Shown here: positions 7,412 through 31,260 of the stretch, one piece after another
Layout: each line of letters begins with the position of its first letter
Position numbering within the stretch: position 1 is the first letter of the stretch
Source of the DNA: Alphaproteobacteria bacterium
Lineage (GTDB): Bacteria > Pseudomonadota > Alphaproteobacteria > UBA2966
Direction of reading: 5' to 3'
Length of the DNA stretch: 64,000 nt
Assembly: GCA_021296255.1 (NCBI GenBank)
Contig: JAGWAU010000009.1
Coordinates: forward strand, 62,001 to 126,000
The notes under the pieces: generated by a model
Seen by the model: only the letters and a program-made list of their open reading frames with translations
Told to the model about the DNA's origin: nothing
Databases searched by the model: none
Translations under genes and position numbers: made by a program

Positions 7412-8803
7412 CTAACCATCCCGCTGCGGCAACAGGAGACCGGTCACCGATGTGCGATCGTCGAACACGTGCCGCGCCGCCGCGAGAACGTCTTCGGCGG
7501 TCACGGCGGCGATCAGGTCCGGCCAGGCTTCCACGTCCTCCGCGGTGCGGCCGACCGCGAGTGCGGCGCCGAAAAAGCGTGCCCCGGCCGCCAAACTGTC
7601 CCGAGAGAATACGGCTTCGGCCATCATGCCGGCCTTCGCCCGCCGAAGCTCTTCCCCCGTGACCCCGGAGTCCAACAGCGTGTCGATCTCCTCCTCGATC
7701 CGCGTTTCGATTGTCTCAAGGTCCCCACCGGCCCGCGGACTGCCGTAGAGATAAAACCGTGAGAGGTCCATCGAGCCGCCGCCGTACGATGTCCCGGCAC
7801 CGCTCGCCACCTTTTCCTCGACGACCAGCCGCCTGTAGAGGCGTGACGTCGTTCCGCCCCCGAGAATTTCCGAAAGAACCTGGAGCGGTATCGCATGCCG
7901 GGTCTCGCCGGCCGTTCTGCTGGGTGCCAGGTAGGTCCGTCTCCAGGACGGCACGCGGACTCGGGGATCACGCATCACGACGCGCCGGGCGGCCCGCTGC
8001 GGCGGCTCGCGCAGACGCTGGCGTGCCGCGACGTTTCGCGCCGGAATGGGGCCATAGTGCTTTTCGGCCAGCGGACGCACCTGGTCGGGGGTCACGTCCC
8101 CCGCGACGATCAGCACGGCGTTGTTCGGCGCATAATACCTGGCATAGAGATCGAGCAGGTCCTGCCGCGAGAGTTCCGCCACCTCGTGCTCCCAGCCGAC
8201 CACGGGGCGCCCGTACGGGTGTGAGTGGAACTGCACGGAGTTCATCTGCTCGCTCAGCAGACTGCTCGGATCGTTCTCCAGCCGCGAACGGCGCTCCTCC
8301 TGAACGACCTTGCGTTCGGCGGCGATATCCTCCTCGCGCACCACCAAGTTGGTCATGCGATCGGCCTCCAACCGCATCACCGTCTCCAGATGCCGGGAGG
8401 CGATCGTCTGGTAGTAGCCCGTGTAGTCGTAACCCGTGAAGGCGTTGTCGTGGCCGCCGAGGTGGGCCACGGTCCGCGAGAATTCGCCCGCCGGTACGTT
8501 TCGCGTCCCCTTGAACATGATGTGCTCGAGGTAGTGAGCGAGCCCGGATCTGCCCGGCGGGTCGTCGGCCCCGCCCACCTTGTACCAGATCATGTGGGTG
8601 ACGACGGGAGCCCGGTGATCCGAAATCACGACGACCTGCAGTCCGTTGTCGAGGGTGAACTGCCGGGGATTGAACAGGCCCGCCCGCGTGGCGCCGTGGA
8701 GGTCGCCGGCGAGGAGGGCCAGGAACAAGGTCGTGGCGATGACCGGAAGGTCCGGCCGCAGGCGCCGTCCACCCCTGAATTTCCTTGGCACGGTGCGAGC
8801 CAT
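7412..8803 (-). CDS. M16-family zinc metallopeptidase, catalytic subunit
   Basis: A 463-residue zinc protease with the inverted HYLEH motif (His90, Glu93, His94) and the downstream EERRSRLEN glutamate that completes the zinc site. A signal-anchor/signal sequence spans about residues 18-37. The frame is open to 9238 but the ATG at 8803, with GAGAACGAGG just upstream, starts the normal protein; the upstream 145 codons are Ser/Arg/Ala-rich and not family-like. Forms an operon with the noncatalytic partner. Substrate unknown; such pairs degrade peptides in the periplasm. Confidence 0.92.
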   Translation of the reverse strand: MARTVPRKFRGGRRLRPDLPVIATTLFLALLAGDLHGATRAGLFNPRQFTLDNGLQVVVISDHRAPVVTHMIWYKVGGADDPPGRSGLAHYLEHIMFKGTRNVPAGEFSRTVAHLGGHDNAFTGYDYTGYYQTIASRHLETVMRLEADRMTNLVVREEDIAAERKVVQEERRSRLENDPSSLLSEQMNSVQFHSHPYGRPVVGWEHEVAELSRQDLLDLYARYYAPNNAVLIVAGDVTPDQVRPLAEKHYGPIPARNVAARQRLREPPQRAARRVVMRDPRVRVPSWRRTYLAPSRTAGETRHAIPLQVLSEILGGGTTSRLYRRLVVEEKVASGAGTSYGGGSMDLSRFYLYGSPRAGGDLETIETRIEEEIDTLLDSGVTGEELRRAKAGMMAEAVFSRDSLAAGARFFGAALAVGRTAEDVEAWPDLIAAVTAEDVLAAARHVFDDRTSVTGLLLPQRDG

Positions 8804-8939
8804 ATCGCCTCGTTCTCTCCGTTCGCGGACGTCACGCGCAATCTCTGGAGGATATGGAGGTATGAAAGACGACCGCAAGCGCGGGAACTTCACGCTCCCG
8901 TGAATTCGGGCATCCCGGCGGTCGGAAGCAGCGGGCAAG

Positions 8940-9242
8940 GTGCAACGACTCGTGCTCATCGGGGGAGCACCAACCGATTCGGTCGCGATGCGCGACGGCC
9001 GATTGCCGACAATGGGTGCTTGCGCGCCGGGCCGTTCCTTGGCGCTCGAAACGTTCCGGCTGGCCGAAGACGCGGAAGCGTTCGCCCGCCGGTTGGAGAA
9101 GCCGCGCGCCTTCGCGCGGGTCGAGGCGGCGGGCGACGCGCCCTCGCTCAAGGCGGTGCGCTCGGCGCTGGAAGAGGCGCTCTCGGATCGAACCGGTATA
9201 CCGACAGGCAGGCTACGATCCGCCGGTGATCTGTACACCTAA
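8940..9242 (+). CDS. Possible small unknown ORF
   Basis: The 459-bp gap between the M16 gene and the next gene contains a 100-codon frame starting with GTG. Its second half (about residues 35-82, ALETFRLAEDAEAFARRL onward) has strong G/C third-position bias and a helix-like Ala/Glu/Arg composition, as in real genes here, while the first 30 codons do not. I recognise no family; it may be the remnant of a longer gene. Low confidence. Confidence 0.25.
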   Translation: MQRLVLIGGAPTDSVAMRDGRLPTMGACAPGRSLALETFRLAEDAEAFARRLEKPRAFARVEAAGDAPSLKAVRSALEEALSDRTGIPTGRLRSAGDLYT

Positions 9243-9262
9243 CGAACTTTTGGAGTCCGATC

Positions 9263-9481
9263 ATGCAGACGACACGGCCTGACCCGATCATCACCGAAGT
9301 CCGCGCTATTCGGGACGAATACGCGGCTCGTTTCAACTACGACGTGGGGAGGATGTTCCGGAACCTCCGAGCCAGAGAGGAGGCTTCCGACCGCAAGTAT
9401 GTCTGCCTTCCCGCTCGTCGTCCGGCGACCGATTTGAGTATTGCTCGGGATCAAGTTGCGGACGAGACACGTGGCCAATAG
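9263..9481 (+). CDS. Small conserved protein of unknown function (72 aa)
   Basis: Begins MQTTRPDPIITEVRAIRDEY and continues with AARFNYDVGRMFRNLRAREE and YVCLPARRP. This resembles a widespread family of short proteins of unknown role with the pattern DPIxEEVRxIREEYAxxFxYDL. GGAG precedes the ATG by 9 bp. The last 15 residues (after ARRP) look unrelated and may be an added or frameshifted tail. No partner toxin or antitoxin lies beside it. Bases 9482-9780 contain nothing I can support. Confidence 0.55.
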   Translation: MQTTRPDPIITEVRAIRDEYAARFNYDVGRMFRNLRAREEASDRKYVCLPARRPATDLSIARDQVADETRGQ

Positions 9482-9780
9482 CCGGGATAAGGGACCGAAA
9501 GGCAGTGAAGTTTCGATTCAGGAATGGCTCGAACAGATAGGGAAGCGCGAGACCTGCTTCCTCGGGTTCTTGGCGATGCCGAGACAGGGATTGGTGCCGC
9601 GCTCGCGCAGGCCCCGCTTCCCGGCCCGGAACATCCTCGCGCGCAGGATCTTCGAGGAAGCCGCTTGGCGATGTGGGACGGGGTAAGCCGTAAGGCTCTG
9701 CAACCAGGGCAGTTTCCGCCGCTTCACGCGATGACGGACACCAGCCGGAAGCGCATCAGCGACGCGTCGGGCGGGATCGA

Positions 9781-22862: not shown

Positions 22863-23145
22863 TTAACTCGAAGGCCACCTCTCTTGGAGCGAGCATGCTC
22901 TCGAAGGGCGCGGAAATCCTTCGGGCCGTGAGCAATGAGGAGGATCCGAACCGACTGGAAGCTAGCCCGTTGTCGCCCGCCCGGAATGTGTGTCATGAGC
23001 GAACGCACGCCCGCTCTGGACGGCACGGCCTGGTGCCTGCTGCGCGGCAGCGAACGTGGACCTTAACCCTCATCAAGTGTCCCTTGGCGCGCGAGCGCTA
23101 TGGTCGAGCCAGCCAAAACAGGCGATTGGATAACGGCAGGGCGGG

Positions 23146-23325
23146 ATGGAGCTGCTCTATTTCACGGTCATGGCGGTCGTGCTCTACTTCGTCTCCGACT
23201 GGGTCGTTGATCGGATCGAGCATGCGGCGGGCCGTCGTTTCGAACACCGTACGCTGCTCTTCTTCGCCGTCATCCTCGCTCTCGGGACCGTTGCCTTCTG
23301 GCTGATTCGAACGCTACCGGGTTGA
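23146..23325 (+). CDS. Small two-helix membrane protein next to heme-copper cluster
   Basis: A 59-residue protein: MELLYFTVMAVVLYFVSDWV, then a basic loop DRIEHAAGRRFEHRT, then a second helix LLFFAVILALGTVAFWLIR. I recall similar short proteins beside terminal-oxidase genes in proteobacteria, but no function is established. GGGCGGG precedes the ATG. Its stop codon is inside the FNR-type box at 23322-23335, so it is probably a separate unit upstream of the regulated cluster. Confidence 0.7.
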   Translation: MELLYFTVMAVVLYFVSDWVVDRIEHAAGRRFEHRTLLFFAVILALGTVAFWLIRTLPG

Positions 23326-23335
23326 TCTAAATCAA
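23322..23335. promoter_or_regulatory. Perfect FNR/DNR-type binding site
   Basis: TTGAT-CTAA-ATCAA matches the FNR/ANR/DNR consensus TTGAT-N4-ATCAA at all ten positions. It lies 93 bp before the first gene of the heme-copper cluster. A candidate -10 element TAGGGT at 23358-23363 would put the transcription start near 23370, making the box centred at -41.5, the class-II activator position. The regulator itself is not in this window; an O2-sensing FNR or an NO-sensing DNR/NnrR protein would both fit. Confidence 0.75.
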
Positions 23336-23428
23336 TCAGGGCCTTCCGGTGGCCTGCTAGGGTACCCCGGTTGAGCGCCTCTCCCTGACTCGGGCGTGTC
23401 GCGGCGAGGCCGAGAGAGGGGACGAATC

Positions 23429-23605
23429 ATGACGGATACCGGTCAAGACACGAGAGCGTCGGATCAGCCGGCCGAGCGCGTGCCCTTCATGCAGCGCCTG
23501 CTGGACAACCCGTTCCTGCTGCTCTTCCTCGGGGTCGCCGTGCCGGCGGTCCTCTATCTCATGTGGGGGATCATGGAGGTCGCCCAGATCCCCATCGCGC
23601 CGTAG
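23429..23605 (+). CDS. Small membrane subunit of the heme-copper complex (CbaD-like)
   Basis: A 58-residue protein with one membrane helix (PFLLLFLGVAVPAVLYLMWG, residues about 28-47) and a soluble polar N-terminus. Its size and position directly before the CuA subunit recall subunit IIa of ba3-type oxidases. AGAGGGG precedes the ATG at 23429; an upstream in-frame start at 23396 is unlikely because it would lengthen the polar tail with basic residues. Confidence 0.7.
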   Translation: MTDTGQDTRASDQPAERVPFMQRLLDNPFLLLFLGVAVPAVLYLMWGIMEVAQIPIAP

Positions 23606-23620
23606 GCCGGAGGGACCGAC

Positions 23621-24166
23621 ATGGCCATACATCCGCCTGAAAAACGCATTTGGTGGAACGAGCCCCTCGAAAGATCGGAAGTCACGTGGATCACCATCGC
23701 TTTCATCTGGGGCTTGGTGATGTTCTTCACCATGGTGTTCTGGCACTTCACCGGCGAACAGAACCTCTCCAACGAGGCCTACCGTATCCACCCCGAGACC
23801 TTCGCCGAGCGCACCGAGGCGATGGCTGACCAATATACGGTCCGCGAAGAGGGCGACACCGGTATCCCGGTGGTCCATCCACCGCCGGGAAGCGACGTTT
23901 ACATGTTGGCGCGCCTTTGGGAATGGTGGCCGATCCTCGAACTGGAGGAGGGTAAGGATTATCGCCTGCACCTCTCCTCGATGGATTGGCAGCACGGTTT
24001 CTCGCTGCAGCCCGAAAACATCAATATCCAGGTCCATCCGGGCTACGAGCTCGTGTTGACGCTCACGCCCGAAGGCGTCGGAGAGTACTGGGTCGTTTGC
24101 AACGAATTCTGTGGGATCGGCCACCATCAGATGGTGGGAAAGATCTACGTGGTGGAAGCGAAATAG
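23621..24166 (+). CDS. Heme-copper reductase subunit II with CuA site
   Basis: A 181-residue subunit: one N-terminal helix (TWITIAFIWGLVMFFTMVF, about 22-40) and a periplasmic cupredoxin domain. All CuA ligands are visible: His125 (DWQH), Cys160, Glu162, Cys164, His168 and Met171 in CNEFCGIGHHQM. It should accept electrons from a c-type cytochrome or cupredoxin and pass them to subunit I. Such a CuA subunit occurs in ba3 oxidases and also in sNOR-type NO reductases. Ends 10 bp before subunit I. Confidence 0.88.
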   Translation: MAIHPPEKRIWWNEPLERSEVTWITIAFIWGLVMFFTMVFWHFTGEQNLSNEAYRIHPETFAERTEAMADQYTVREEGDTGIPVVHPPPGSDVYMLARLWEWWPILELEEGKDYRLHLSSMDWQHGFSLQPENINIQVHPGYELVLTLTPEGVGEYWVVCNEFCGIGHHQMVGKIYVVEAK

Positions 24167-24176
24167 GGGGCGTGTC

Positions 24177-25901
24177 ATGGCGAGCATCGCTGATACCGGT
24201 ACCCTGCCGAGGGCTGCCGAGTTCCGAACGTGTCCCGACACCGGCCTCAAGATCGACCTCGCGGCCGAGAAGCTGATCCGCTGGAACGCGGTCGTTGCCG
24301 TGGTGTTCCTCGCCATCGGCGGCTTCTTCGGCCTGCTGGTGGCGCTGACCCGCTGGCCAGCGGTCCATCTGTTGCCGGCGGAGTGGTTCTACCTGGCGCT
24401 GACGGCGCACGGCGCCGACGTGCTGCTGTTCTGGGTCATCTTTTTCGAGATCGCCATCCTCTACTTCGCTTCGGCGGTTCTGCTCAACAGTCGCCTCGCG
24501 GCCCCGCGGATCGCCTGGCTCGGGTTCTGGCTCATGCTGGCCGGCGCCCTTCTCGCCAACGTGGCGGTGCTACAAGGCGAGTCGAGCGTCATGTTCACGT
24601 CCTATGTGCCCATGCAGGCGGCACCCCACTTCTATCTCGGCCTGATCCTCTTCGCCGTCGGGGCTTTGGTTGCCGTCGCCGTGTTCTTCGGCACGCTGGT
24701 CATCGCGAAGGATGAGGGCACCTACGAGGGATCGGTGCCATTGGTCACATTCGGTGCCATCGCCGCGGCGGTTATCGCGGTCTTCACCATCACCTCGGGT
24801 GCCATCATTCTCATTCCCACCTTCTTCTGGTCGGTCGGCATCATCAGTCACATCGATCCGGTGATGTACAAGGTCGTGTGGTGGGGCATGGGCCACTCCT
24901 CGCAGCAGATCAACGTCTCGGCCCACGTCGCGGTGTGGTATGCCATCGCCGCCATGGTGCTGGGCGCCAAGCCGCTATCGGAGAAGGTGAGCCGTTTCGC
25001 CTTCCTCATGTACATCCTGTTCCTGCAGATCGCTGCGGCACACCACCTTCTGGTGGAACCGGGTATCAGTTCGGAATGGAAGATCTTCAATACGAGCTAC
25101 GCGCTCTACCTTGCCGTGCTCGGCAGCCTCATCCACGGCCTCAGCGTCCCCGGTGCCATCGAAGCGGCCCAGCGCCGCCGTGGCTTCACCAAGGGCGTGT
25201 TCGAATGGTTGCGCAAGGCGCCGTGGGGTAATCCGGCCTTCTCTGGGATGTTTCTGTCGCTCGTCATGTTCGGTTTCCTCGGCGGCATCTCCGGCGTGGT
25301 GCTCGGCTCGGAGCAGATCAACCTGATCCTGCACAACACCATGTACGTGCCTGGCCATTTCCACGGCACCGTCGTTGCCGGGACGACGCTCGCCTTCATG
25401 GCCATCACCTATCTCGTGGTGCCGCTGATTTTCCGCCGCGAGATCATGTTCAAGAAAGTTGCCCAGTGGCAGCCGTACGTCTTCGGTCTCGGCGTCGCAG
25501 GCATATCGCTGTTCATGATGGGAGCGGGCACGCTCGGCGTCAGTCGGCGCCACTGGGACATCACCTTCTCCGATGCCCCCGTGGCCTTCGACTATCCCGG
25601 CACGGCTTTCTTGATGATGGGGCTGAACGGCGTGTTCGGCGTCCTCGCGGCTTTGGGTGGCCTGATGTATATCGTGGTTGTGGTCTGGTCCGTCTTCTTC
25701 GGAGAACGACGAACCGAGGAGAAAGCGCGGTCCGAGCCGTTGTTGCCCCAGGACGGCGCGGCGGCGGTTGCGACCTACGGCAGCGAGGGCACCCTCAAGC
25801 TGCCGGGCACGATCACGCTCGTCGCGGTCTTCTTCGTGGCTTTTGTCCTCTACTACTTCGTCAACTGGAAGTTCCTGTCGGAAGTCTGGCCCTTGAGTTG
25901 A
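24177..25901 (+). CDS. Heme-copper reductase subunit I lacking the active-site Tyr (candidate sNOR-like NO reductase)
   Basis: A 574-residue, 12-or-more-helix catalytic subunit. Metal ligands are intact: His78 (LTAHGAD) and His396 for low-spin heme, His394 for the high-spin heme (PGHFHG), and CuB ligands His240, His289 and His290 (AAAHHLL). However, oxygen reductases have HPxVY after the first CuB histidine, where Tyr is covalently cross-linked; here the segment is HSSQQ, with Gln244 at the Tyr position. Loss of that Tyr is characteristic of nitric oxide reductases. Together with a CuA subunit and SenC this recalls the norSY-senC genes of ammonia oxidisers. A divergent ba3 oxidase remains possible. 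ATG 24177 chosen; the upstream frame overlaps subunit II. Confidence 0.8.
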   Translation: MASIADTGTLPRAAEFRTCPDTGLKIDLAAEKLIRWNAVVAVVFLAIGGFFGLLVALTRWPAVHLLPAEWFYLALTAHGADVLLFWVIFFEIAILYFASAVLLNSRLAAPRIAWLGFWLMLAGALLANVAVLQGESSVMFTSYVPMQAAPHFYLGLILFAVGALVAVAVFFGTLVIAKDEGTYEGSVPLVTFGAIAAAVIAVFTITSGAIILIPTFFWSVGIISHIDPVMYKVVWWGMGHSSQQINVSAHVAVWYAIAAMVLGAKPLSEKVSRFAFLMYILFLQIAAAHHLLVEPGISSEWKIFNTSYALYLAVLGSLIHGLSVPGAIEAAQRRRGFTKGVFEWLRKAPWGNPAFSGMFLSLVMFGFLGGISGVVLGSEQINLILHNTMYVPGHFHGTVVAGTTLAFMAITYLVVPLIFRREIMFKKVAQWQPYVFGLGVAGISLFMMGAGTLGVSRRHWDITFSDAPVAFDYPGTAFLMMGLNGVFGVLAALGGLMYIVVVVWSVFFGERRTEEKARSEPLLPQDGAAAVATYGSEGTLKLPGTITLVAVFFVAFVLYYFVNWKFLSEVWPLS

Positions 25902-25916
25902 GCGGAGGCGCTCGGC

Positions 25917-26783
25917 ATGGTAGCGGTTGTCAGGGAGCTTTACGGTGTCTTCAAGCTGCGTATCGGATTCGCGATCGCGCTGAGCGCGGCGGCAGGTCTC
26001 GCGGCGACGCCTGGTCCATCCCTCCCGTTCTGGAACGCTACGGCTCTCGTCTTGGCCGTATTGCTTGCAGCCGCGAGCGCCGGCGCCTTCAACCAATTCG
26101 CTGAGCGCGATCTCGACGCGCGCATGGTCCGCACCCGCGAACGGCCCTTCGTCTCGGGCCGGTTTACCGCCGGGCCTTTCTGGCTTGCCATCATCGGTGG
26201 ACTGCTTGTGTTTTCGGTGATGCTGGCCGCCTGGGCCACCAACGTAGTGGCCGCCACGCACGTGTTCCTCGGCGCCTTCGTGTACGGCGTCGTCTACACT
26301 GTGTGGCTCAAGCGCCGCACCTGGCTCAACATCGTCGTCGGAGGTCTGTCGGGAAGTTTCGCGGTGCTGGCCGGTGCAGCGGCCGTCGATGCGAGTCTCT
26401 CCGCCGTGCCGGTCTGCCTCGCAATCGTTCTGTTCCTCTGGACGCCTCCGCATTTCTGGAGCTTGGCGATGGCACTGCGCGAGGACTATGCCCGGGCCGA
26501 GGTGCCCATGCTGCCGATCGTTGTCGGCGATGTACGGGCGGCCAAGGTTATTCTTGCCCATACGGTGGTGCTCGTCGCCTTGTCGTTGATGCCTTTCATC
26601 TACGGGCTTGGCCTCGTCTATCTCGCGTTGGCGGTGATTGGCGGCTGGGTTTTCGTCGAGAAGAGCATCGCCCTCGTACGCACACCCGGACCTGCGGCGG
26701 CGCGCGCGAACTTCAAGGCCTCGCTGCTGCAGCTCTCGTTGATTCTGGTCGGCGCCATGGCGGACGCATGGTTGCCCTTGTAA
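25917..26783 (+). CDS. ctaB: Protoheme IX farnesyltransferase (heme O synthase)
   Basis: A 288-residue UbiA-family prenyltransferase that farnesylates heme b to heme O for heme-copper enzymes. The prenyl-diphosphate/Mg2+ motif is NQFAERDLDARMVRTRERP (residues about 61-79) and the second is WTPPHFWSLAMALREDYA. About eight membrane helices. It lies 15 bp after subunit I and overlaps the SCO gene, so it is part of the same transcript. No heme A synthase gene is present here. Confidence 0.92.
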   Translation: MVAVVRELYGVFKLRIGFAIALSAAAGLAATPGPSLPFWNATALVLAVLLAAASAGAFNQFAERDLDARMVRTRERPFVSGRFTAGPFWLAIIGGLLVFSVMLAAWATNVVAATHVFLGAFVYGVVYTVWLKRRTWLNIVVGGLSGSFAVLAGAAAVDASLSAVPVCLAIVLFLWTPPHFWSLAMALREDYARAEVPMLPIVVGDVRAAKVILAHTVVLVALSLMPFIYGLGLVYLALAVIGGWVFVEKSIALVRTPGPAAARANFKASLLQLSLILVGAMADAWLPL

Positions 26784-27595
26784 GTCGTTGCGCTTCGCGG
26801 GTCTTGACTGCGTTGTGCCTGTTCGCAGCCGTCCCGGGGCTGGCGGCACCGCCAGCTCCCACCGCCTTCGATCCTGATCGGGCGCTTGCGGATAGCCAAG
26901 CGGCTCTGGGACGCACGCTCTCGGGTTACGAATTTCGTGACGCTTCGTTCCGACCGCTGACGCTTTCGGAGTTTCGCGGCCGACCGTTGCTGATCAACCT
27001 GGTCTATACGAGTTGTGCTTACGACTGTCCGCTTACCATCGAGACGTTGGCCGAAGCCATCGATATCGCGCGCGAAGCAGTGGGCCGGGAAAGTTTCCAA
27101 GTGCTGACCGTCGGATTCGACACGCGCATGGATACGCCGGAACGGATGCGCGAATTTGCCGCCAATCATGGCATTCGCGACGACGGCTGGCGTTTCGCCA
27201 GTGCCGAGCACGAGACCATTGCACGACTCTCGAAGGATTTGGGCTTCTTGTTCTTCCCTTCGGCAAAAGGCTTCGACCACATCGCCCAGACTACGCTCGT
27301 CGACGCTGACGGCGTCATCTACCGCCAAGTCTACGGCGCTGCGTTCGATCCGCCCTTTCTGGTGGAGCCGCTGAAGGATCTGGTTTTCGGGCGCGAGAGC
27401 GTGCCGACGTCGCTTGAGGGGCTGATCAACCGCATCCGCTTCTTTTGCACCATCTACGACCCGTCGAGCGGCCGCTACCGGTTGGACTACTCCCCCTTCA
27501 TTGCCATCGCTGTCGGTATCGCCTCCCTCGGCGGGTTGGGCTTCGTCGTCGTGCGCGGTTGGCTCCGTCAGCGTCGCCCTCGCGCGCGGTCCTGA
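26768..27595 (+). CDS. SCO1/SenC-family copper chaperone
   Basis: A 275-residue thioredoxin-fold protein involved in building CuA. N-terminal signal sequence (about residues 10-26), copper-binding CAYDC (after VYTS) and the conserved His in KGFDHIAQTTLVD; a C-terminal membrane helix (about 245-264) makes it doubly anchored. The ATG at 26768 overlaps the end of ctaB by 16 bp in another frame. The partner subunit II keeps all CuA ligands, so the chaperone has a target. In ammonia oxidisers senC follows norSY. Confidence 0.9.
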   Translation: MVALVSRCASRVLTALCLFAAVPGLAAPPAPTAFDPDRALADSQAALGRTLSGYEFRDASFRPLTLSEFRGRPLLINLVYTSCAYDCPLTIETLAEAIDIAREAVGRESFQVLTVGFDTRMDTPERMREFAANHGIRDDGWRFASAEHETIARLSKDLGFLFFPSAKGFDHIAQTTLVDADGVIYRQVYGAAFDPPFLVEPLKDLVFGRESVPTSLEGLINRIRFFCTIYDPSSGRYRLDYSPFIAIAVGIASLGGLGFVVVRGWLRQRRPRARS

Positions 27596-27613
27596 CGGGG
27601 CGAGGGCGGGCGT

Positions 27614-29203
27614 GTGACGGCGCTGCAGCGTATCTTGCGGCCGGCCCTCTGGCGCCTCGACGATCTGTTGTCGCGTATTTTTGGACCTGCCTGGAACCCC
27701 CTCTACAACCTCGGAGCGCTGGGTTTTTTCTTTTACTGGATCGTCGCGATCAGCGGCATATACATCTACATCTTCTTCGATACCGGCGTTACCGAGGCTT
27801 ACGACTCCGTCGCCTACATGACGGAGGACCAGTGGTACCTTGCCGGCGTGATGCGGAGCCTGCACCGCTACGCCTCGGACGCCCTGGTCGTCGTCATGGT
27901 GCTGCATCTGATCCGCGAGTTCGCCTATGACCGCTACCGAGGCGCGCGTTGGTTCAGCTGGCTTACCGCCGTCCCGATAATTTTGTTTGTCCTCGCGTCC
28001 GGCATCACGGGCTACTGGCTGGTCTGGGACCAGCTTGCGCAGTACGTCGCCATTGCCACCATGGAATGGCTCGACTGGCTGCCCATCTTCGGTGAGCCCA
28101 TCGCCCGTAACTTTCTGGCGCCCGACGCGCTCGATGACCGTTTCTTCACTTTGCTCGTGTTCCTGCACATCGCCGTGCCGTTGCTGTTGCTGCTGGCATT
28201 GTGGATCCACCTGCAACGGGTGAGTCGGCCACGCGTCAACCCGCCGCGCGGTCTGGCCGCGGGTAGCTTCGCGGCGCTTCTCGCGCTCTCATTCGCCATG
28301 CCGGCGACCAGTCATGCACCCGCCGATCTGGCGAAGGTCCCCACAGTCCTCGATCTCGACTGGTTCTATCTCGGATTCCATCCGTTGATGGACGTGTGGT
28401 CCCGCGGCACGGTGTGGGCCACGGCCGCTGTGCTGATGCTGACGATTGCCGTCATGCCCTGGTTGCCTCCCTTTCGCCGCCCTGAGGTGGCGCGGGTTGA
28501 TCTCGACAACTGCAACGGGTGTGCCCGCTGCGCCGAGGACTGCCCCTTCAACGCGATCTCGATGGAGCGCCGCAGTGACGGCAAACCGTTCGACCGGGAA
28601 GCGGTCGTCAATAGCTCGCTGTGCGTGAGCTGTGGGATTTGCGCGGGGGCCTGCCCGACGGCGACCCCCTTCCGCCGCACCGGCGCCCTGGTCCCGGGGA
28701 TCGAACTGCCCCACGCCACCCTGGTGAGCTTGCGGGACGCACTCGATCGAAAGGCGGATACCGGTAGCCAACAGGTCTACCTCATCGCCTGCGAGCATGG
28801 GGCTAGGCGGGAGACGATCGGCCACCCGGACCTCGCCGTCGCCACGGTACCTTGCATCGGCGCCCTGCCGCCGTCGTTCATCGACTACCTGCTGAGCCGC
28901 TGTGGCGCGGCAGGCGTCTACTTGGCCGGATGCCCGCAGGGCAATTGCCACTTCCGCCTCGGCAACGCATGGACCGAGGCGCGCCTCGAGGGACGGCGCG
29001 ACCCGATCCTGCGCAAACGGGTTCCACGCGAACGGGTGTGCTGGGGCTGGTTCGCGCCTCACCAGTCGTCGGGGCTGCGGCGGTCCGTCGAGGCGTTCCT
29101 CCGCGATGTCCGCGGTTTGCCTCCTCAGGAGGCTCCGTCCGTCCGACAGCTCAGCACCCGCTTCGACCGGTCGCGGGAAGAGGGAGGCGTTGGCGGTCCA
29201 TGA
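27614..29203 (+). CDS. Cytochrome b6-like / 2[4Fe-4S] ferredoxin / MvhD-like fusion protein
   Basis: A 529-residue three-part redox protein. Residues 1-280 are a cytochrome b/b6 membrane domain with two bis-His pairs each 14 apart (His84/His98 and His185/His199). Residues 296-352 hold two [4Fe-4S] motifs: Cys300, 303, 306, 310 and Cys337, 340, 343, 347. Residues 386-510 resemble the delta subunit of methyl-viologen hydrogenase/heterodisulfide systems, with Cys393, 414, 430, 440 and 445 (GCPQGNCHF). It could link the quinone pool to low-potential carriers or feed the heme-copper enzyme. GTG start at 27614; it overlaps the next gene by ATGA. Confidence 0.85.
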   Translation: MTALQRILRPALWRLDDLLSRIFGPAWNPLYNLGALGFFFYWIVAISGIYIYIFFDTGVTEAYDSVAYMTEDQWYLAGVMRSLHRYASDALVVVMVLHLIREFAYDRYRGARWFSWLTAVPIILFVLASGITGYWLVWDQLAQYVAIATMEWLDWLPIFGEPIARNFLAPDALDDRFFTLLVFLHIAVPLLLLLALWIHLQRVSRPRVNPPRGLAAGSFAALLALSFAMPATSHAPADLAKVPTVLDLDWFYLGFHPLMDVWSRGTVWATAAVLMLTIAVMPWLPPFRRPEVARVDLDNCNGCARCAEDCPFNAISMERRSDGKPFDREAVVNSSLCVSCGICAGACPTATPFRRTGALVPGIELPHATLVSLRDALDRKADTGSQQVYLIACEHGARRETIGHPDLAVATVPCIGALPPSFIDYLLSRCGAAGVYLAGCPQGNCHFRLGNAWTEARLEGRRDPILRKRVPRERVCWGWFAPHQSSGLRRSVEAFLRDVRGLPPQEAPSVRQLSTRFDRSREEGGVGGP

Positions 29204-29700
29204 CCAGTGCTCTCCGATATGTGGGCCAGGCCGCCGTGCTCGTCGCCTTTGCCGGGGTGGTCGGGTTCTTTTCCGCCGCTCCGTCTTTTCGTCATTTTCC
29301 CGAGGGGCAGGCCTTACTCAAGGTGAGCTTCGCGCATGGCGGCGCCCGTAGGGCGGAATGCCGGAAACGGACGCGGCGGGAGCTTGCGGAGATGGCGGCG
29401 AACATGCGGAAGGAGATGGATTGTCCTCGTGGACGAGTAGACCTAAGGCTCGAGGTCGACCTCGATGGAGCACCGCTCTACCAGGCGACGCTGCCGCCGA
29501 CGGGGCTTGCGGGGGACGGCCCGTCGCGCGTCTACGAACGGTTTGTGCTCCCCGCGGGTCGCCACGTTCTCCATCTTCGCTTGCGCGATTCCCGTCGGAA
29601 TCAGGGGTTCGATCACGTCACGCAGAAGGTTGTGGAGCTCGCTGCCGGACAAAGTGTTGCCGTCGATTTCCGCGTCGGCGAGGGGTTCATCGTCCGATGA
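29200..29700 (+). CDS. Membrane-anchored protein of unknown function in heme-copper cluster
   Basis: A 166-residue protein starting in the ATGA overlap with the preceding gene. One N-terminal helix (YVGQAAVLVAFAGVVGFFSA) followed by a mainly beta periplasmic domain with RYxLDDG-like pattern (RVYERFVLPAGRHVLHLRLR). Pairs ECRKR and MDCPRG give two cysteines that might bind metal or form a disulfide. Strict coupling to the cytochrome b fusion suggests a partner in the same complex; no known family recognised. Confidence 0.7.
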   Translation: MTSALRYVGQAAVLVAFAGVVGFFSAAPSFRHFPEGQALLKVSFAHGGARRAECRKRTRRELAEMAANMRKEMDCPRGRVDLRLEVDLDGAPLYQATLPPTGLAGDGPSRVYERFVLPAGRHVLHLRLRDSRRNQGFDHVTQKVVELAAGQSVAVDFRVGEGFIVR

Positions 29701-29737
29701 CGGCTGGGCCAGGCAGGACTGTCGAGGGAGGTCCATC

Positions 29738-30145
29738 ATGGCGCTGATCCCGTGGCGAGAGGCGTTCGAGATCGGGATCGAGCCGGTCGATCACGAGCAC
29801 CGCGAGTTGATAGACCTTATCAACCAACTCCATGACCGGCTCGATCGTAGCGCCGAGCCGGAGATCGTCGCTGGTTTTCTCGGTGAGATCTATGCGCGCA
29901 TCTCCGCGCATTTCGCCCTCGAGGAACGAGTCATGCGCGACCTCGAGTACGACGACTACGCGGATCACAAGGATGACCATGAAGCCCTGCTGGACGATAT
30001 CAGGGACATCATGGATGTCTTCGACGAGGGCGGCTATGTGGACTTACAGGAGGATTTGGGAGACCAACTCGAAACGTGGTTCGGTGGACATTTCCGCACG
30101 AAAGACGCCCGCCTTCACACCTTCCTCGAAGACAGGGGCGCTTGA
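29738..30145 (+). CDS. Bacteriohemerythrin
   Basis: A 135-residue four-helix-bundle protein with a carboxylate-bridged di-iron centre that binds O2 or NO. Ligands: His21 (VDHEHREL), His58 and Glu62 (HFALEE), His77 and His81 (HKDDH), His118 and Asp123 (HFRTKD). GGGAGG lies 8 bp upstream of the ATG. Thirty-seven bp after the cluster's membrane protein, so it is likely cotranscribed; it may deliver or scavenge O2 or NO for the reductase. Confidence 0.92.
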   Translation: MALIPWREAFEIGIEPVDHEHRELIDLINQLHDRLDRSAEPEIVAGFLGEIYARISAHFALEERVMRDLEYDDYADHKDDHEALLDDIRDIMDVFDEGGYVDLQEDLGDQLETWFGGHFRTKDARLHTFLEDRGA

Positions 30146-30155
30146 TCGAAATCAA
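30142..30155. promoter_or_regulatory. Second perfect FNR/DNR-type binding site
   Basis: TTGAT-CGAA-ATCAA matches the same consensus at all ten positions and overlaps the hemerythrin stop codon. It lies 182 bp before the BKACE gene. I see no convincing -10 at the class-II spacing, so its target is unclear: it may act at a distance on the next gene or be a roadblock at the end of the cluster. Confidence 0.55.
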
Positions 30156-30336: not shown

Positions 30337-31260
30337 ATGACGGACAAGGTTGCCATCGTTGTCGCACCGACCGGGGCGCTCAACACGCGCGAATCGGCGC
30401 CTTACATGGCCTATACCGTTGAGGAGCAGGCTGTAGAAGCGAGGAACTGTGAAGACGTCGGCGCGTCCATCTATCACGTCCACGTCAGGGACGAGCGGGG
30501 CGCGAATTCGGGTGATCCCGAGATCTACGGCCGACTGGTCGAGCACGTGAGAGCGAAGTCCGGTTTGCTCATTCAAATCGGCGGGGCGCTCGGACCCGGC
30601 CGCGACCCCGACACCGGCATCATCGGCTATCCCTTCACCGAGGAAGACCGGCTGCACGCTCTCGAGACGAAGCCGGCGCCGGACATGTTCACGGTGAAAA
30701 TCGGTGCGGTCGAGCTTCGGGTTCCGGCCAAGAACTATGAAACCATCGGCCTGCGGAACTCGCCCAAATTCCTGCGCCAGGCGATTCCCTACGTCATGGA
30801 ACGGGATATGTGCCTGGAGCTGGAAATCTTCGATGTCGGCTGTCTGTACAACGCCAAGATCCTGGAGGAAGAGGGGCTTTTCGGACCTGCGGGACTGAGC
30901 TCTCCCGGGTGCTACCTGCACTTCGTGATGGGCCATGGTGGCCAGCCGGCGACGATGAAGCAGCTGATGTATCTGCATGAAGAGTCGCTGAAACTGTTTC
31001 CCAGTGCGGAAATCTGCGTAAGCGCCGCGGCGGACGAATGCTATCGCATCATCACGACCGCGATGCTTCTGGGCTGCAACATGGTGCGGTGCGGTATAGA
31101 AGACAGCCGGCACCTGTCGAACGGCCGGCGCGCCGAAAGCAACGTTCAAATCGTCGAAAACGTCGTGAGGATCGCGCGGGAGATCGGACGGGACGTGGCC
31201 TCGGTCAACGAAGCTCACGAGATGCTGATGCCGAAGACGTCGGCCCAGCGCGCCGCCTGA
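30337..31260 (+). CDS. Beta-keto acid cleavage enzyme (BKACE, DUF849)
   Basis: A 307-residue TIM-barrel zinc enzyme that condenses a beta-keto acid with acetyl-CoA, giving a CoA thioester and acetoacetate. Zinc ligands are in IYHVHVRDERG near residue 45; GGALGPG and the C-terminal GCNMVRCGIEDS are typical. Substrate specificity (3-keto-5-aminohexanoate, dehydrocarnitine, beta-ketoadipate and so on) cannot be assigned. Likely acts with the SDR 217 bp downstream. Confidence 0.88.
   Translation: MTDKVAIVVAPTGALNTRESAPYMAYTVEEQAVEARNCEDVGASIYHVHVRDERGANSGDPEIYGRLVEHVRAKSGLLIQIGGALGPGRDPDTGIIGYPFTEEDRLHALETKPAPDMFTVKIGAVELRVPAKNYETIGLRNSPKFLRQAIPYVMERDMCLELEIFDVGCLYNAKILEEEGLFGPAGLSSPGCYLHFVMGHGGQPATMKQLMYLHEESLKLFPSAEICVSAAADECYRIITTAMLLGCNMVRCGIEDSRHLSNGRRAESNVQIVENVVRIAREIGRDVASVNEAHEMLMPKTSAQRAA

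What the first reader, a model, noticed from the sequence alone, without database searches (positions are those of the whole stretch)
23429..29203. Heme-copper cluster that may be an sNOR-type nitric oxide reductase
The sequence shows a CuA-bearing subunit II beside a subunit I with all six His ligands but with Gln244 in the position (His240 + 4) where oxygen reductases carry the cross-linked Tyr. Established knowledge: loss of this Tyr is shared by NO reductases (cNOR, qNOR and the CuA-containing sNOR of ammonia oxidisers, whose genes are norSY-senC). Inference: the order II, I, ctaB, senC plus the FNR/DNR-type box and a hemerythrin fits NO reduction better than ordinary ba3 oxidation.
Basis: partly seen in the sequence, partly recalled or inferred. 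Interest (0 to 1): 0.85.

Follow-up and report, generated by a model that had tools for sequence, protein, structure and literature searches.

The report
Nitric oxide reductase (eNOR) operon
This gene cluster most likely encodes eNOR, a known but often misannotated enzyme that turns toxic nitric oxide into nitrous oxide, and it nearly always travels with an electron-carrying membrane protein whose role has not been tested.

Summary
Window 23146-30145 is a nine-gene unit: small membrane protein, IIa-like protein, CuA subunit II, B-family heme-copper subunit I with six His but Gln244 in place of the cross-linked Tyr, ctaB, Sco, a cytochrome b/[4Fe-4S]/FlpD fusion, an unnamed protein and bacteriohemerythrin, with a strict FNR box near its start. 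NO reduction is supported, but as eNOR, not sNOR: a published table gives Gln for eNOR and Asn for sNOR. All 122 distinct Gln-type homologues also carry Glu91 and group apart from Tyr-type enzymes; one lies in a MAG (BS150m-G9) already credited with eNOR in print. cd1 nitrite reductase genes lie 5-12 kb away in 6 of 7 relatives, although the host genome shows no NirS, NirK or NosZ. The enzyme is a new member of a known kind. Less expected is the partner: the cytochrome b/FeS/FlpD fusion keeps its cofactor ligands and is present in 30 of the 31 Pseudomonadota genomes that have the enzyme (34 of 398 genomes have the fusion), in half of them on another contig or more than 13 kb away. It may be a cytoplasm-facing electron-input module; that is inference. 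No activity was measured, and the primary eNOR paper could not be read.

The parts
23146..23325 (+). 59-aa membrane protein, first gene of the 7-kb unit
   Evidence: ORF; inside the shared 7-kb homology block; no Pfam or NCBIfam match
23322..23335 (.). Strict FNR/DNR-type box TTGAT-N4-ATCAA
   Evidence: FNR-like box within 1300 bp upstream of the SU-I ORF in 48 of 72 named loci against 2 of 58 in a control stretch. The closest relatives L026, L027 and L158 show none by this pattern
23429..23605 (+). 58-aa single-helix protein, subunit IIa-like (by size and place)
   Evidence: Homologue beside SU-II in 75 of 76 named loci with enough upstream DNA; no family match
23621..24166 (+). CuA subunit II
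   Evidence: PDB 1ehk_B match; CuA ligands kept in 129 of 129 homologues, repeats included
24177..25901 (+). B-family heme-copper subunit I, eNOR type (Q244, E91)
25917..26783 (+). Heme o synthase CtaB/CyoE
   Evidence: TIGR01473 over cut-off; present in 57 of 73 named loci
26780..27595 (+). SCO1/SenC copper chaperone
   Evidence: PF02630 over cut-off; present in 69 of 69 named loci
27614..29203 (+). Cytochrome b (two b-heme His pairs) + two [4Fe-4S] + FlpD/MvhD fusion
   Evidence: Pfam; ligands in 75 of 75 distinct rows; 65 of 66 named operons; co-occurrence
29200..29700 (+). 166-aa protein with N-terminal hydrophobic segment, no family
   Evidence: No Pfam, NCBIfam or PHROGs match; present in 62 of 63 named loci
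29738..30145 (+). Bacteriohemerythrin
30142..30155 (.). Second strict FNR box at the end of the unit
   Evidence: target unknown

Best explanation
The unit encodes an eNOR-type nitric oxide reductase with its assembly factors and a dedicated electron-transfer partner, probably switched on by an FNR/DNR-type regulator at low O2 or in the presence of NO. SHOWN by sequence: a B-family heme-copper subunit I with heme and CuB His intact and Gln replacing the cross-linked Tyr; a CuA subunit II; ctaB and Sco; a partner with two b-heme His pairs, two [4Fe-4S] sites and an FlpD domain; a hemerythrin. INFERRED from the family: electrons enter at CuA, pass to the low-spin heme and on to the heme/CuB site, where 2 NO + 2 e- + 2 H+ give N2O + H2O; without the Tyr the site lacks the extra electron and proton donor used to split O2. 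INFERRED, less sure: the cytochrome b/FeS/FlpD protein, with its iron-sulfur part in the cytoplasm, links a cytosolic electron carrier to the membrane (quinone pool or eNOR), and the hemerythrin binds NO or O2. As no nitrite reductase was found in the host, its use there is more likely removal of NO made elsewhere than full denitrification.
For: Gln at His+4 in every one of 122 distinct close homologues and E91 in all of them and in none of 15 Tyr rows. Tree: 30 Gln rows on one side of a branch, 99/94, 100% of 200 bootstrap trees, 13 Tyr rows on the other. Published diagnostic: Gln = eNOR. L029, second-nearest row in the tree, is from MAG BS150m-G9, to which PMC8879329 assigns ba3-a1/eNOR. cd1 nitrite reductase homologues 5-12 kb from the gene in 6 of 7 relatives and NirK in the seventh; annotated nirS about 3.6 kb from a Gln-type gene on a Thermus plasmid. 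FNR-like boxes. Partner: 30 of 31 genomes with the enzyme also have the fusion, of 398; identical set of 8 of 96 relatives.
Against: No activity data here. The host genome (97% complete) shows no NirS, no NirK over cut-off and no NosZ, so no NO source of its own was found. The three closest relatives lack the FNR box by the pattern used. Only 12 of 80 named loci show NirS and 1 NirK in the held flank (many loci are short). The tree holds no biochemically characterised O2 reductase and no sNOR, and has long branches. Gln-type Thermus and Thermomicrobium plasmid records lack the partner, so it is not needed for the chemistry everywhere. The primary eNOR paper was not read.
Confidence: 0.82

Rival explanations
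1. It is an sNOR (NorSY).
For: CuA subunit II beside subunit I, Sco nearby, missing Tyr.
Against: Gln, not Asn, at the diagnostic place in 122 of 122 close homologues (table). No Asn-type sequence was found in the searches made, so sNOR could not be put in the tree.
Confidence: 0.04
2. It is an O2 reductase that manages without the Tyr, or whose Tyr comes from another place.
For: B-family fold; invariant Tyr residues such as Y255, Y279 and Y308, of which Y279 on helix VII cannot be excluded as a site residue; FNR control also fits a low-O2 oxidase.
Against: Separate branch from Tyr rows; the helix VII place used by cbb3 (six before the His pair, recalled) is Leu or Ile in 122 of 122; nirS and nirK neighbours; literature reports NO reductase activity for the family (second-hand).
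Confidence: 0.08
3. It acts on NO in another way, for instance as a dismutase, or as an NO sink only.
For: Loss of Tyr and gain of Gln is compatible with other NO chemistry; in NO dismutases the NOR Glu is also a Gln (recalled, different family).
Against: eNOR is counted among biochemically characterised NO reductases (PMC11388526). CuA electron entry, ctaB and Sco point to an electron-consuming reaction.
Confidence: 0.03
4. It is eNOR, but the cytochrome b/FeS/FlpD protein is not its electron donor: eNOR is fed by cytochrome c, and the fusion does a separate job, such as feeding the quinone pool, a cytoplasmic repair or hemerythrin reduction.
For: eNOR is reported to use reduced cytochrome c (PMC8879329 citing the preprint). 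Thermus and Thermomicrobium plasmid records have the enzyme without the fusion. FlpD domains usually talk to soluble Hdr-type proteins (family knowledge; matches).
Against: It is about as constant as subunit II and Sco (65 of 66 operons) and more than ctaB (57 of 73) or hemerythrin (54 of 61), and it stays in the genome when it has left the operon.
Confidence: 0.45

Closest known systems
eNOR, earlier 'ba3-a1' in Alphaproteobacteria (PMC8756737, PMC8879329, PMC6431628)
   Same: B-family subunit I with Gln for Tyr, CuA subunit II, Sco in the operon; same clade as the copy in MAG BS150m-G9, 78-79% identical
   Different: Nothing in the enzyme itself; the passages read do not mention the cytochrome b/FeS/FlpD partner or the hemerythrin
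Thermus thermophilus ba3 oxidase
   Same: Fold (Z 33.7, rmsd 2.7 over 479 residues, 27% identity), six His, CuA subunit II
   Different: Tyr at His+4 there, Gln here; no Glu at position 91 in Tyr-type rows
sNOR (NorSY-SenC)
   Same: CuA subunit II, Sco/SenC gene, no cross-linked Tyr (sNOR features from the finding)
   Different: Asn in sNOR, Gln here
Cytochrome b6 / HdrA2-type FeS-FlpD tails (for the partner protein)
   Same: His pairs 14 apart as in b6 (H84/H98, H185/H199), ferredoxin plus FlpD tail as in HdrA2
   Different: All in one chain without a flavin domain. PMC8756737 Table A3 lists one ORF, RME88945.1, with a C1 (cytochrome) domain, cyt b6, FeS and FlpD, so the combination is not unique

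Membership tests
eNOR | Gln in place of the active-site Tyr (PMC8756737 Table A4) | tested here: met
   Q244; 122 of 122 close homologues
eNOR | Heme and CuB His ligands | tested here: met
   All six in the window protein and in 121 of 122 Gln rows; the Thermus plasmid copy has Lys for the last
eNOR | CuA/cupredoxin subunit II next to subunit I | tested here: met
   23621-24166
eNOR | Groups with sequences called eNOR in print | tested here: met
   Second-nearest row L029 is BS150m-G9, named as a ba3-a1/eNOR carrier in PMC8879329. The link is by MAG name, not by protein accession
eNOR | One proton channel (Table A4) | tested here: inconclusive
   Polar residues N246, Y255, N305, T306, S307, Y308 almost invariant, but no channel was modelled
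eNOR | Reduces NO to N2O | not testable with these tools
   Needs biochemistry
sNOR | Asn at the Tyr place (Table A4) | tested here: not met
   Gln
sNOR | Groups with NorY of ammonia oxidisers | not tested
   No Asn-type sequence was found to include
B-family (ba3) O2 reductase | Cross-linked Tyr at His+4 of helix VI | tested here: not met
   Gln
B-family (ba3) O2 reductase | Nests among Tyr-bearing rows | tested here: not met
   Separate side of a 99/94 branch; no characterised oxidase was in the tree
bNOR (CuANOR) | Asn at the Tyr place (Table A4) | tested here: not met
   Gln
gNOR | Asp at the Tyr place (Table A4) | tested here: not met
   Gln
cNOR/qNOR | Glu at the Tyr place (Table A4), no CuA | tested here: not met
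   Gln and a CuA subunit II

The most novel reading that the evidence does not exclude
In Pseudomonadota eNOR is not a stand-alone cytochrome c-fed enzyme. It works with a near-obligate, cytoplasm-facing electron-input protein (cytochrome b + two [4Fe-4S] + FlpD, in some loci next to a cyt b + [2Fe-2S] + FAD + NAD-binding version), so cytosolic reductant can drive NO reduction through the membrane. That would be a heme-copper enzyme system with its own cytosolic electron supply, letting cells remove NO while the ordinary respiratory chain is blocked by it.
Probability: 0.3. Interest if true: 0.72.

Novelty: new member of a known kind. Interest (0 to 1): 0.47.

Why it matters
In the rows compared here Gln244 with Glu91 separates this type from Tyr-type enzymes. 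The constant partner, about which four text searches of the open library found no link to eNOR, makes the question of where eNOR gets its electrons in Proteobacteria directly testable.

Tried and rejected
sNOR: rejected on the published diagnostic residue; it could not be put in the tree because none of the hits had Asn. Oxidase with a displaced Tyr: the cbb3-type place was checked and is Leu or Ile; Y279 stays open. Denitrification at home: no NirS (PF02239), no NirK over cut-off (TIGR02376; two weak hits, 34 and 23.5 bits), no NosZ over cut-off (TIGR04244; the one weak hit is the CuA end of this SU-II) in G000; a 97%-complete assembly can miss genes. Text searches for the partner with eNOR or NO reductase listed no paper whose passages describe the link; I saw listings, and did not open the papers of 88 and 89 apart from those read earlier. 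The PNAS eNOR paper is not held, so the link may be described there. A first NirS check used the longest ORF of a locus as query, probably an antisense frame; its NirS rows are not used and one search replaced it with the annotated Thermus NirS. A first count of ctaB and Sco (49 of 73 and 63 of 69) missed genes whose ORFs read far upstream; one search recounted them as 57 of 73 and 69 of 69. In one search, 132 Gln of 151 rows include re-fetched copies; one search gives 122 of 141 distinct. The SU-I model is only moderate (pLDDT 74; low at 375-393) and no coordinates could be measured, so no distances are claimed. In one search A-family oxidases score as high as ba3, so the fold alone does not fix the family. 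VIA-align listed only cytochrome b chains for the partner, which says nothing on its FeS and FlpD parts. The mirrored identity of SU-I and partner (r 0.75, 75 rows) was not used, as shared descent gives the same.
Full report
Anatomy. Re-reading the window gave nine same-strand genes in 23146-30145: a 59-aa membrane protein, a 58-aa single-helix protein placed like subunit IIa, CuA subunit II, subunit I, ctaB, Sco, a cytochrome b fusion, a 166-aa protein without a family, and a bacteriohemerythrin. Pfam or NCBIfam cut-offs are met by subunit I, ctaB, Sco, the fusion and the hemerythrin; subunit II rests on its match to Thermus ba3 subunit II. Strict FNR boxes lie at 23322 and 30142; 0.006 are expected in the window. 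About 7.0 kb, from 23105-23130 to 30139-30154, is 84% identical to L158, L026 and L027, and blastn found nothing more in their held flanks. The same order from IIa to hemerythrin, without a match to the first small gene, is on a Defluviimonas plasmid. Two same-genus genomes lack the gene while a genome of another family has a 95%-identical copy. That the unit moves between lineages is inferred from this.

Active site. Subunit I aligns with Thermus ba3 and its model superposes on it (Z 33.7, rmsd 2.7, 479 residues); A-family oxidases score slightly higher, so fold alone does not set the family. All six His are present and Q244 stands where ba3 has the cross-linked Tyr. Of 141 distinct aligned rows 122 have Gln, 15 Tyr, 3 Phe and 1 is cut off. 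All 122 Gln rows have Glu at position 91 in helix II; none of the 15 Tyr rows does. 121 of the 122 keep all six His; the Thermus plasmid copy has Lys for the last. The helix VII place where cbb3 oxidases carry their Tyr (place recalled) is Leu or Ile in all 122.

Family. In a 46-row maximum-likelihood tree the 30 Gln rows lie on one side of a branch (99/94; 100% of 200 bootstrap trees) and the 13 Tyr rows on the other; three Phe rows attach on the Gln side with 94/78. The tree has long branches, no Asn-type sNOR and no biochemically characterised oxidase. PMC8756737 (passages and part 1 of Appendix 2 seen) gives Gln for eNOR, Asn for sNOR and CuANOR, Asp for gNOR. PMC8879329 (passages seen) says that ba3-a1 of Alphaproteobacteria was renamed eNOR after NO reductase activity was reported, and names MAG BS150m-G9 as a carrier. 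That MAG's copy is L029 here, 79% identical and 78%, and the second-nearest row. PMC6431628 (passages) had noted that ba3-a1 lacks the Tyr and has Sco in its operon. PMC11388526 (passages) counts eNOR among characterised NORs. PMC8114936 and PMC10734462 (passages) use eNOR as a denitrification gene. The primary paper was not available.

Context. cd1-type nitrite reductase homologues lie on the same contig 5-12 kb from subunit I in 6 of the 7 other genomes with the gene among 96 relatives; in G015 the near one is a 46%-identical cd1 homologue and the best-scoring cd1 gene is on another contig. The seventh, G089, has NirK. Four of the seven have NosZ over cut-off. Among the 80 named loci, 12 have a NirS match above 400 bits and one a NirK match in the held flank; many loci are short. 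Thermus plasmid pTF24b has an annotated nirS about 3.6 kb from the Gln-type gene. PMC4653789 (passages) reports eNOR in an operon with NirK. Against this, the window's own genome shows none of NirS, NirK or NosZ over cut-off, and only two COX1-family genes, this one and an aa3-like one.

The partner. The gene at 27614-29203 encodes cytochrome b, a two-cluster ferredoxin and FlpD in one chain. In 75 of 75 distinct rows the four heme His, the eight ferredoxin Cys and three FlpD Cys are kept; a fourth FlpD Cys is kept in 73. The predicted helices and the Arg-rich loops put the iron-sulfur part in the cytoplasm (inference). Of 398 Pseudomonadota genomes, the Gln-type SU-I was found in 31 (30 long matches, one 84-residue fragment that does not reach the Gln) and the fusion in 34; 30 have both. 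Enzyme alone: G156. Fusion alone: G208, G224, G362 (69-82% complete) and G231 (730 contigs). In 13 of the 30 the best matches lie on different contigs, and in two more they are about 14 and 19 kb apart; some of this is assembly breakage. In 96 relatives the same 8 genomes have both. The one named miss, L105 (Accumulibacter), has the fusion elsewhere in its genome, and so have G137 and G123 behind the two unnamed misses. The Saprospiraceae MAG behind L085 has none. Kinship makes the Fisher value of 1e-39 far too small; the match over many families remains.

A clue to direction. In L103 and L204 a second cytochrome b lies next to the fusion and ends in [2Fe-2S], FAD and NAD-binding domains; the Accumulibacter genome has a second cyt b in the same place whose tail was not scanned. 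These were 2 of the 108 loci checked for such a tail. PMC8756737 Table A3 lists one ORF that joins a C1 cytochrome domain to cyt b6, FeS and FlpD. Both hint that a cytosolic redox domain feeds a membrane cytochrome b; this is inference. The Thermus and Thermomicrobium plasmid records, searched alone without their chromosomes, carry the Gln-type enzyme without the fusion, so the fusion looks like an addition in Pseudomonadota rather than part of the core chemistry.

Verdict. The enzyme is a new member of a known kind. The conserved electron-transfer partner is the part worth following; the library searches showed no description of it with eNOR, but the primary paper was out of reach.

Noticed in passing
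30142-30155: A second strict FNR box at the very end of the hemerythrin gene, before a BKACE-family gene (30337-31260); its target is unknown.
   Followed up: no
L015 (Thermus thermophilus pTF24b), SU-I 7983-9668: This Gln-type subunit I has Lys where the other 121 distinct Gln rows have the last His (window H396, expected low-spin heme ligand), in a motif GHFK.
   Followed up: no
L103:13420-15882 (+), L204:6640-8631 (-): A second cytochrome b fused to [2Fe-2S], FAD and NAD-binding domains beside the cyt b/FeS/FlpD gene.
   Followed up: partly
29200-29700: A 166-aa protein with an N-terminal hydrophobic segment, in 62 of 63 named operons yet in no Pfam, NCBIfam or PHROGs family.
   Followed up: partly
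   Followed up: partly
L211 (G286) and genomes G223, G311, G362: Two copies of the cyt b/FeS/FlpD gene in tandem.
   Followed up: no
L014 (Defluviimonas plasmid NZ_CP156080.1), 6214-12960: The cluster from IIa to hemerythrin on a 165-kb plasmid.
   Followed up: no
L085: A MAG titled Saprospiraceae carries a 71%-identical copy on a contig that ends just after subunit I and has no partner gene; it may be a mis-binned contig.
   Followed up: no
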